This document shows positions 55,044 to 62,597 of a DNA stretch of 64,000 bases, piece after piece (within the stretch, counting starts at the first letter, position 1; each line of letters opens with the position of its first letter). Source of the DNA: Anaerolineales bacterium (GTDB taxonomy: Bacteria; Chloroflexota; Anaerolineae; Anaerolineales; Villigracilaceae). Both the position numbers and the translations under genes were made by a program. The stretch is taken from assembly GCA_019187665.1 (NCBI GenBank), contig JABARH010000007.1, forward strand, positions 1-64,000, in the 5' to 3' direction. The notes below the pieces were generated by a model that had not been told where the DNA came from, did not search any database, and saw only the letters and a program-made list of their open reading frames with translations.

Positions 55044-55248
55044 GTGTGCACGCAAAGGTTGTCAGTCTTGTAAAAGGCCCTCACCCCCCGGCCCCTCTCC
55101 CCCAATGCGGGAGAGGGGAGAACAGTTTCCAAGTAAACGACTTTTCTCCCCCTTCTCTCTCCCATGCTTTTGGGAGAGAGAAGGGGGCCGGGGGGGTTGA
55201 GTGAGGGCCAAGACCGCGCAGGCTACCTGACATGGTTTGCGTGCACAC
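55044..55248. mobile_element. Nested palindromic MITE-like element with 8-base duplication
   Basis: Outer inverted repeats start GTGTGCACGCAAA (55044) and end TTTGCGTGCACAC (55248), exactly bracketed by GAACCGGA (55036-55043 and 55249-55256). Nested inside is a second palindrome: GGCCCTCACCCCCCGGCCCC (55076) facing a GGGGCCGGGGGGG...GTGAGGGCC arm ending at 55209, with GGGAGAGGGG and GGGAGAGAGAAGG arms between. No coding capacity. Confidence 0.85.
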
Positions 55249-55264
55249 GAACCGGAATCGCGTA

Positions 55265-55293
55265 TTGACATTCAACTTGAAGTATGTGATACT
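55265..55293 (+). promoter_or_regulatory. Promoter of the small transcription unit
   Basis: A perfect -35 box TTGACA (55265-55270), a 17-base spacer and GATACT (55288-55293; four of six match TATAAT). Transcription would begin near 55300, just upstream of the small ORF and its terminator. Confidence 0.65.
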
Positions 55294-55362
55294 GCCGGCA
55301 TCGTTGAGGCGGGAATCACAACTGAATAGCCATCCTTATGAAAGGAGGAGGTGATGTCTAAC

Positions 55363-55410
55363 ATGGATAGTAGTATGCAACCCAGCGCTGTGGCATCCCT
55401 CCTCAAGTAA
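55363..55410 (+). CDS. 15-residue peptide MDSSMQPSAVASLLK
   Basis: Small ORF within the candidate RNA. ATG 55363 lies 7 bases after AGGAGGTGAT; an in-frame ATG at 55354 would add three residues but is too close to that site. The stop is TAA at 55408. The peptide has no run of a single amino acid that would suggest a classic attenuator. The ORF's 3' half forms one arm of the long stem, so translation should change RNA folding. Confidence 0.5.
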   Translation: MDSSMQPSAVASLLK

Positions 55411-55453
55411 GTCGGCAGGAAGTGCACCTGCACCTCCGGGACGCCACAGCGCA

Positions 55454-55490
55454 AACAGAACGCCATCCGCAAGGGTGGCGTTCTGTTTTT
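55454..55490 (+). terminator. Strong intrinsic terminator
   Basis: ACAGAACGCCATCC (55455-55468), GCAA loop, GGGTGGCGTTCTGT (55473-55486): 14 pairs with one wobble, followed by TTTT. Confidence 0.95.
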
Positions 55491-62405: not shown

Positions 62406-62428
62406 AAAAAAATCCTCCGGCGGAGGAT
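62405..62428 (-). promoter_or_regulatory. Riboswitch expression platform hairpin
   Basis: On the minus strand ATCCTCC-GCC-GGAGGAT is followed by TTTTTT and directly by the thiN ATG. The GGAGG in the 3' arm is the thiN Shine-Dalgarno, 8 bases from the start. The hairpin can therefore act as terminator, as Shine-Dalgarno sequestrator, or both when TPP is bound. Confidence 0.85.
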
Positions 62429-62442
62429 GATTCGATAAGAGA

Positions 62443-62530
62443 TGTTCCCTCCGCTGGTATGAACCAGATCAGGTGATGCGGGTCGAGCGCGGCACGCTCC
62501 TCTCAGCCTGTTCGGCAGGCTCCCCGTTCG
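62443..62530 (-). promoter_or_regulatory. TPP riboswitch (thi box)
   Basis: Read on the minus strand the conserved cores appear in order: CGGGGAGCC, GGCTGAGAGG, GACCCGC, then ACCTGATCTGGTTCATACCAG and CGGAGGGA. This is the thi-box aptamer; it controls thiN and the ABC genes downstream, shutting them off when TPP is plentiful. Confidence 0.95.
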
Positions 62531-62597
62531 GTTGTGCGGCGAGTATAGGCTTCGCGGGAGGGAATGTCAAGTCAATCATGGTAAAATCTTGCGCGCT

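What the first reader, a model, noticed from the sequence alone, without database searches (positions are those of the whole stretch)
55265..55490. Compact transcription unit with a 15-codon ORF, long stem and competing anti-Shine-Dalgarno sequences
A perfect TTGACA with 17-base spacing to GATACT, a near-perfect Shine-Dalgarno, a tiny ORF, a 14/15 long-range stem that includes the ORF's 3' half, and a strong terminator lie within 225 bases. Two sites (55398-55404 and 55431-55437) can pair with the Shine-Dalgarno. This looks like a translated small RNA or a leader that senses translation. It begins just after a mobile element.
Basis: partly seen in the sequence, partly recalled or inferred. Interest (0 to 1): 0.7.

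Follow-up and report, generated by a model that had tools for sequence, protein, structure and literature searches.

The report
Phylum-wide self-gated micropeptide RNA switch
This is a short stand-alone gene, present once in most Anaerolineae genomes and in other Chloroflexota, whose RNA encodes a peptide of 14-22 amino acids and can hide its own ribosome-binding site with part of that peptide's coding sequence; it matches no RNA family in Rfam and we found no paper describing it.

Summary
Window 55265-55490 is one copy of a conserved stand-alone RNA gene: promoter, upstream anti-SD (GCCATCC), very strong SD, a 15-codon ORF (55363-55410, MDSSMQPSAVASLLK), a 14/15 hairpin whose 5' arm lies in the ORF, and a terminator. 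Homologues occur once per genome in 219/396 Anaerolineae by a first covariance model and 61/77 by a broader one, and in other Chloroflexota families; Rfam has no match. Translation is supported by frame: start-to-hairpin distances are 28/31/34/37 nt in 73/73 copies. The hairpin is supported by 109 double-compensated cells (26.6 in shuffles), mostly at third codon positions. The SD region is complementary to the 3' half of its own ORF phylum-wide, with compensatory changes, and more so than ~98.5% of synonymous recodings. Folding predicts a switch: when the transcript ends at the stop codon the SD pairs with the ORF; at full length the hairpin takes the ORF segment. Neighbours vary, so it is not a leader. 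Best reading: a self-gated micropeptide mRNA, possibly dual-function. Nothing was tested in cells; the peptide's or RNA's job is unknown.

The parts
55265..55293 (+). sigma-70 promoter TTGACA-N17-GATACT (TG before the -10)
   Evidence: TTGAC-N-ATAnT-type promoters upstream in 58/62 close, 32/40 distant and 22/27 other-class copies against about 0.1-0.2 expected in shuffles
55329..55335 (+). segment a: GCCATCC (GCYRTCC phylum-wide), upstream anti-SD that pairs with GGAGGT (hairpin 1)
   Evidence: RNAalifold independently on A1 and A5; 98.6% paired on A3 but one side nearly invariant, so little covariation
55341..55357 (+). segment b: Shine-Dalgarno / ribosome-binding region AAAGGAGGAGGTGATGT
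   Evidence: invariant core GGAGGTG in A1; complementary to this genome's 16S 3' end GGATCACCTCCTTTCT
55363..55410 (+). ORF of 15 codons, MDSSMQPSAVASLLK*
   Evidence: start-to-hairpin distance 28/31/34/37 nt, frame kept in 73/73 aligned copies; 14-22 aa in 128 copies
55385..55399 (+). 5' arm of hairpin 2 (inside the ORF)
   Evidence: 10 of 10 counted pairs covary on A3, 99.3% paired, 109 double-change cells against 26.6 in shuffles
55398..55404 (+). segment c: anti-SD CCTCCTC inside the ORF, pairs with GAGGAGG (55345-55351)
   Evidence: 98.8% paired on A1; 100% paired on A5; co-change with the SD; better than about 98.5% of synonymous recodings
55438..55452 (+). segment d: 3' arm of hairpin 2
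   Evidence: in two other-class copies (L334, L337) it repeats the SD-proximal sequence GGTGATGCCC
55454..55490 (+). intrinsic terminator hairpin with U tract
   Evidence: MFE structure; terminator-like sites within 110 nt of the stop in 119/127 copies against about 6.6 in shuffles

Best explanation
It is a stand-alone micro-gene whose transcript of about 190 nt is a self-gated messenger for a conserved 14-22-residue peptide. Four segments lie in the order a (upstream anti-SD), b (SD/RBS), c (anti-SD within the ORF's 3' half, overlapping or adjoining the hairpin 5' arm), d (3' arm). While the RNA is being made, a and then c can capture b and keep ribosomes off. Once d is transcribed, c is drawn into the very stable c:d hairpin, which leaves the RBS held only by the weak a:b hairpin, so an initiating 30S with its unusually long SD match can take it. 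A translating ribosome runs through c, the stop codon lies in the hairpin loop, and an unconditional terminator ends the RNA. Shown by sequence comparison: gene conservation, translation frame, hairpin c:d, complementarity b:c. Predicted: the a:b + c:d versus b:c exchange. Inferred: timing during transcription, and that the output is the peptide acting in trans, with the RNA possibly also active.
For: Conservation: one strong copy in nearly every same-family genome; 219/396 class genomes; 61/77 class genomes in another draw with a broader model; other families f82, f118, f121, f123, f113, f76, f139. The model built mainly on other classes (15 of 18 rows; the other 3 are Anaerolineae of families f47 and f26) also rings at the same place in the Anaerolineae genome G072, of another family, E = 2e-6. 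Coding: frame kept in 73/73. Hairpin. SD:ORF pairing. Two-state fold: in RNA cut at the stop codon the RBS pairs with the ORF 3' half (mean 0.78/0.88/0.62; at least 0.3 in 118/128 copies); in longer RNA this falls to 0.03-0.15 and the hairpin forms. Precedent for the gating logic: aapA3 mRNA, with an upstream aSD1 and an aSD2 inside the ORF acting during transcription (PMC6733600).
Against: No expression, ribosome or structure-probing data. The SD:ORF helix is mostly invariant within close relatives, so its covariation rests on lineage-level co-changes, which phylogeny inflates. Even full-length RNA is predicted to hold the SD in hairpin 1, so how far translation is 'on' is uncertain. The b:c and c:d helices are topologically compatible as a pseudoknot in Anaerolineae, which the folding program cannot represent. 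The peptide's target is unknown.
Confidence: 0.52

Rival explanations
1. A trans-acting base-pairing small RNA: the C-rich anti-SD in the hairpin loop binds SD regions of other mRNAs, as Yfr1/Yfr10 do, and translation of the ORF only controls its exposure.
For: In Anaerolineae CCTCCTC / CATCACCTC sits at the loop side of hairpin 2 and is strongly conserved; single-copy stand-alone gene with promoter and terminator; Yfr1/Yfr10 need a UCCU motif for a target (PMC6778093).
Against: In other classes the anti-SD becomes GGGYRTCRCC, which lacks CCUCC and instead matches the RNA's own GGTGATGCCC next to the start codon; changes in c track changes in the RNA's own SD, pointing to a cis partner; the peptide frame is also conserved.
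Confidence: 0.2
2. A classical leader/attenuator that senses translation of the ORF and controls the gene downstream.
For: Leader-like short ORF, mutually exclusive helices a:b/c:d versus b:c, terminator; in 11/40 distant loci an AIR-synthase-family gene lies downstream on the same strand; in the window a DUF2085 gene follows.
Against: No constant downstream gene; it is often convergent (PfkA-like by eye, DUF3048-like by eye, HNH-like by eye); a terminator follows the hairpin in 119/127 copies and does not share an arm with hairpin 2.
Confidence: 0.1
3. A type I toxin messenger (hok/aapA-like), with the RNA folds preventing premature toxin synthesis.
For: The same gating parts, aSD1 upstream and aSD2 in the ORF, are known in aapA3.
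Against: Peptides are hydrophilic (mean Kyte-Doolittle about 0, 21% Ser, no membrane helix); no antisense promoter above chance (5 against about 6.8 in shuffles); usually single copy and vertically conserved, unlike most toxin loci.
Confidence: 0.06
4. A plain conserved micropeptide mRNA whose hairpin only stabilises it or helps termination; the SD complementarity is incidental.
For: Peptide and hairpin conservation are individually strong.
Against: The complementarity beats about 98.5% of same-peptide recodings in the median Anaerolineae copy and is kept in lineages with different sequences.
Confidence: 0.12

Closest known systems
aapA3 type I toxin mRNA of Helicobacter pylori (PMC6733600)
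   Same: SD captured in sequence by an upstream anti-SD and by an anti-SD inside the ORF, replaced by a more stable fold when the transcript is complete
   Different: here the final fold pairs the ORF segment with a downstream arm rather than the SD with the 3' end; hydrophilic 14-22-aa peptide; no antisense RNA seen; phylum-wide, usually single copy
trp-type transcription attenuators and the trans-acting attenuator RNA rnTrpL / peptide peTrpL of Sinorhizobium (PMC7298713)
   Same: short ORF of leader-peptide size, alternative helices, terminator; precedent for a 14-aa leader peptide and its sRNA acting in trans
   Different: no regulated gene downstream; the SD itself is one of the switching segments; the terminator is separate and unconditional
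Yfr1/Yfr10 sRNAs of cyanobacteria (PMC6778093)
   Same: nearly universal in a phylum, short, with a conserved UCCU-containing motif
   Different: here there is a conserved ORF and the motif changes with the RNA's own SD
6S RNA (RF00013)
   Same: housekeeping-like, one per genome, about 190 nt
   Different: 6S is a separate gene in this genome (contig C3)

Membership tests
any Rfam 15 family | score at or above the family's gathering threshold | tested here: not met
   no match at the element in the window, even at E<=10 apart from one chance hit, nor in L105, L174, L326, L334
6S RNA | match to RF00013 | tested here: not met
   the only hit in the genome is at C3:107644-107818
transcription attenuator / leader | conserved co-directional regulated gene downstream | tested here: not met
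   neighbours vary and are often convergent
transcription attenuator / leader | short translated ORF with mutually exclusive helices | tested here: met
   frame conservation; two-state folding is a prediction only
type I toxin mRNA | antisense RNA gene opposite or overlapping | tested here: not met
   antisense promoter-like sites no more frequent than in shuffles; transcription itself not testable
type I toxin mRNA | small hydrophobic membrane peptide | tested here: not met
   mean hydropathy about 0, Ser-rich, Arg/Lys at the C-terminus in 71/128
type I toxin mRNA | peptide is toxic | not testable with these tools
   needs expression
dual-function (coding and base-pairing) sRNA | translated ORF | tested here: met
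   by evolutionary signature only
dual-function (coding and base-pairing) sRNA | base-pairs with target mRNAs in trans | not tested
   target prediction or pull-down not done

The most novel reading that the evidence does not exclude
A housekeeping-like RNA gene of the phylum Chloroflexota in which one 15-codon stretch is under three constraints at once (peptide, anti-SD to its own start, hairpin arm). It would form a stand-alone translation-gated RNA switch with no downstream gene, reporting or buffering the state of translation initiation through a micropeptide or the RNA itself.
Probability: 0.35. Interest if true: 0.88.

Novelty: new variant of a known kind. Interest (0 to 1): 0.76.

Why it matters
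Chloroflexota are a large, mostly uncultured phylum with few described RNAs of their own. A usually single-copy, vertically conserved gene that matches nothing in Rfam, encodes a peptide too short for routine annotation and carries a self-sequestering ribosome-binding site would be a new phylum-level regulatory part. It would make testable whether switches like those in toxin mRNAs and attenuators also exist as free-standing housekeeping devices. The covariance models make it directly searchable.

Tried and rejected
6S RNA: found elsewhere in the genome. rRNA antisense/maturation guide: the SD matches the mature 16S tail, but the 16S 3' flank (TCGAG..., TAGAG...) does not match the RNA's upstream part. 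Second anti-SD site 55431-55437: a loop insertion seen only in the window, L101 and L102 within A1. Copies outside Chloroflexota: pattern hits labelled Alistipes, Actinomycetes, Sphingomonas, Clostridia, Dormibacterota and others fail model R2 and R3 (0/8); 197 genomes from the group of the Actinomycetes bin gave one hit at E = 0.0095, chance level. Three non-class hits of R1 at E 0.004-0.008 looked like chance, but R2 hits clustered by family and turned out real for f82 and f118 on inspection. Searches for papers describing this RNA or peptide found none in the held open-access library; subscription papers and preprints were not searched.

Full report
CHECK. The fold is 5.5 SD more stable than dinucleotide shuffles. 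Rfam has nothing at the element at gathering score or at E<=10, apart from one chance snoRNA hit.

CONSERVATION. A DNA search of 100 relatives gave one strong copy per genome in most same-family genomes and weaker ones in other families of the order. From 61 copies (alignment A1) I built model R1. It finds the element in 219/396 Anaerolineae genomes at E<=0.01, with very few second hits. A broader model R2 finds it in 61 of the 77 class members of a phylum-wide draw (unmatched genomes are listed in order of kinship, so the class count can be read off). Outside the class, weak R2 hits clustered in a few families. Reading them showed the same order of parts: promoter, GCCRTCC, AAGGAGGTGATGCYC, a 14-16-codon ORF (MSMSKRMGVTAGETL, MNDSKRMGVAAGEAR, MSNERKGITIEVAR and others), hairpin, terminator. 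A third model R3 was built mainly on these (15 of its 18 rows; three are Anaerolineae, L346, L350, L349). It finds the element strongly in families f82, f118, f121, f123, f113, f76 and f139. It also rings at the R1 site of the Anaerolineae genome G072, whose family is not in the model (E = 2e-6). So this is one homologous family, within Chloroflexota as far as tested. Named records with R2-confirmed copies include ones labelled Anaerolinea thermophila, Leptolinea, Pelolinea, Candidatus Villigracilaceae and Caldilineaceae. Pattern hits in other phyla were not confirmed.

IT IS TRANSLATED (evolutionary evidence). In 73 of 73 aligned copies the distance from the start codon to the end of the hairpin 5' arm is 28, 31, 34 or 37 nt, always the same frame, while SD-to-start spacing takes values 7-12. 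One further copy, L175, from a genome whose loci contain ambiguous bases, has an early stop. In L087, L088 and L100 the upstream ATG is out of frame but the ATG/GTG at the position of 55363 keeps the frame, so 55363 is the likely start. Peptides are 14-22 aa, begin M-D/S with Ser among the first six residues in 122/128, and end in Arg or Lys in 71/128. Double-compensated changes in hairpin 2 fall mostly at third codon positions (columns 78, 81, 84: 77 of 109 cells).

THE HAIRPIN IS REAL. On 74 copies (A3) all ten counted pairs have compensated changes: 109 double-change cells against 26.6 in shuffles, 99.3% of cells paired, against 34-56% when slid. The alignment was fitted to the R1 structure and so leans towards it. 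The MAFFT alignment A1, made without structure, gives 8 of 10 pairs with compensated changes, and the other-class MAFFT alignment A5 gives 6 of 11.

THE RIBOSOME-BINDING SITE PAIRS WITH THE ORF. Within the own-family group GAGGAGG pairs with CCTCCTC; in other orders GAGGTGATGC pairs with GCATCACCTC; in other classes GGTGATGCCC pairs with GGGYRTCRCC. The helix is 98.8% paired in A1 and 100% in A5, though in A5 the changes are mostly one-sided G-U and its shuffle control is not informative. Co-changes: copies with SD GAGGAGG carry CTCCTC in the ORF (58/11/1/31 table), and SD GTGATG versus GTGGTG tracks TCACC in the ORF (29:1 against 2:7). The P values (1e-15, 2e-5) ignore phylogeny. Individual compensations by eye: L097, L161, L162, L181, L190. 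Against 200 recodings with the same peptide, using the ORFs' own codon usage (conservative), the real RBS:ORF duplex is as good as the best 1.5% (median) in Anaerolineae and 4% in other classes.

TWO STATES. Partition-function folding of 128 copies: for RNA ending at the stop codon, RBS bases pair with the ORF 3' half with mean probability 0.78 (own-family group), 0.88 (other orders) and 0.62 (other classes), at least 0.3 in 118/128. For RNA including the 3' arm this falls to 0.03/0.14/0.15, hairpin 2 forms, and the SD core pairs upstream with GCYRTCC (0.78/0.73/0.55). The RNA therefore has attenuator-like segments a:b + c:d versus b:c. In L334 and L337 segment d repeats the SD-side sequence GGTGATGCCC, so c has two identical partners. 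Pseudoknots are not modelled, and in Anaerolineae b:c and c:d could coexist as one.

STAND-ALONE. Promoter-like TTGAC-N-ATAnT sites lie upstream in 58/62, 32/40 and 22/27 copies (0.1-0.2 expected). Terminator-like sites follow in 57/62, 41/43 and 21/22. The flanking genes vary: an upstream divergent DUF4153 gene in about half of the own-family group, downstream PfkA-like (by eye) convergent, DUF3048-like (by eye), DUF2085, AIR-synthase-family, HNH-like (by eye) and others. No antisense promoter signal.

MECHANISM AND FUNCTION. I favour a self-gated micropeptide mRNA. The close parallel is aapA3, where an upstream aSD1 and an in-ORF aSD2 block the SD during transcription (PMC6733600). The generic anti-SD small-RNA reading is weakened because in other classes c lost CCUCC but kept complementarity to the RNA's own start region. 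The leader reading is weakened by the absence of a constant downstream gene. What the peptide or RNA does is not known; that it is the peptide is an inference from third-position covariation and frame conservation.

LIMITS. No expression data; CM E-values are rough; shuffles ignore phylogeny; taxon names of other-class families were not available; the literature search covers open-access papers only.

Noticed in passing
window 55078-55208: 131-bp palindromic repeat (CCCTCACCCCCCGGCCCC...) with 16 full or partial copies at 94% identity or more in this genome, several at contig ends; it sits just upstream of the promoter here, while the homologues I read are not preceded by it.
   Followed up: partly
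L175 (G129): The one Anaerolineae copy whose ORF frame is broken (9 codons, early stop); the genome is 77% complete and its loci contain ambiguous bases, so a sequencing error is possible.
   Followed up: no
G745 C7:19664-19768 and C4:333299-333405: A genome of family f118 with two strong copies of the element (E 8e-22 and 9e-20).
   Followed up: no
order members of genus g59 (family f13): Seven genomes of family f13 (six of genus g59, one of g54) lack any hit with R2, which suggests loss in that lineage.
   Followed up: no
loci L079, L103, L104 and others, upstream: A divergently transcribed DUF4153 membrane protein gene shares the upstream region with the element in 31 of 62 loci of the first set.
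   Followed up: partly
window 62427-62536 (-): TPP riboswitch (RF00059) upstream of a gene by eye of the thiamine pyrophosphokinase type; two tRNAs nearby.
   Followed up: no
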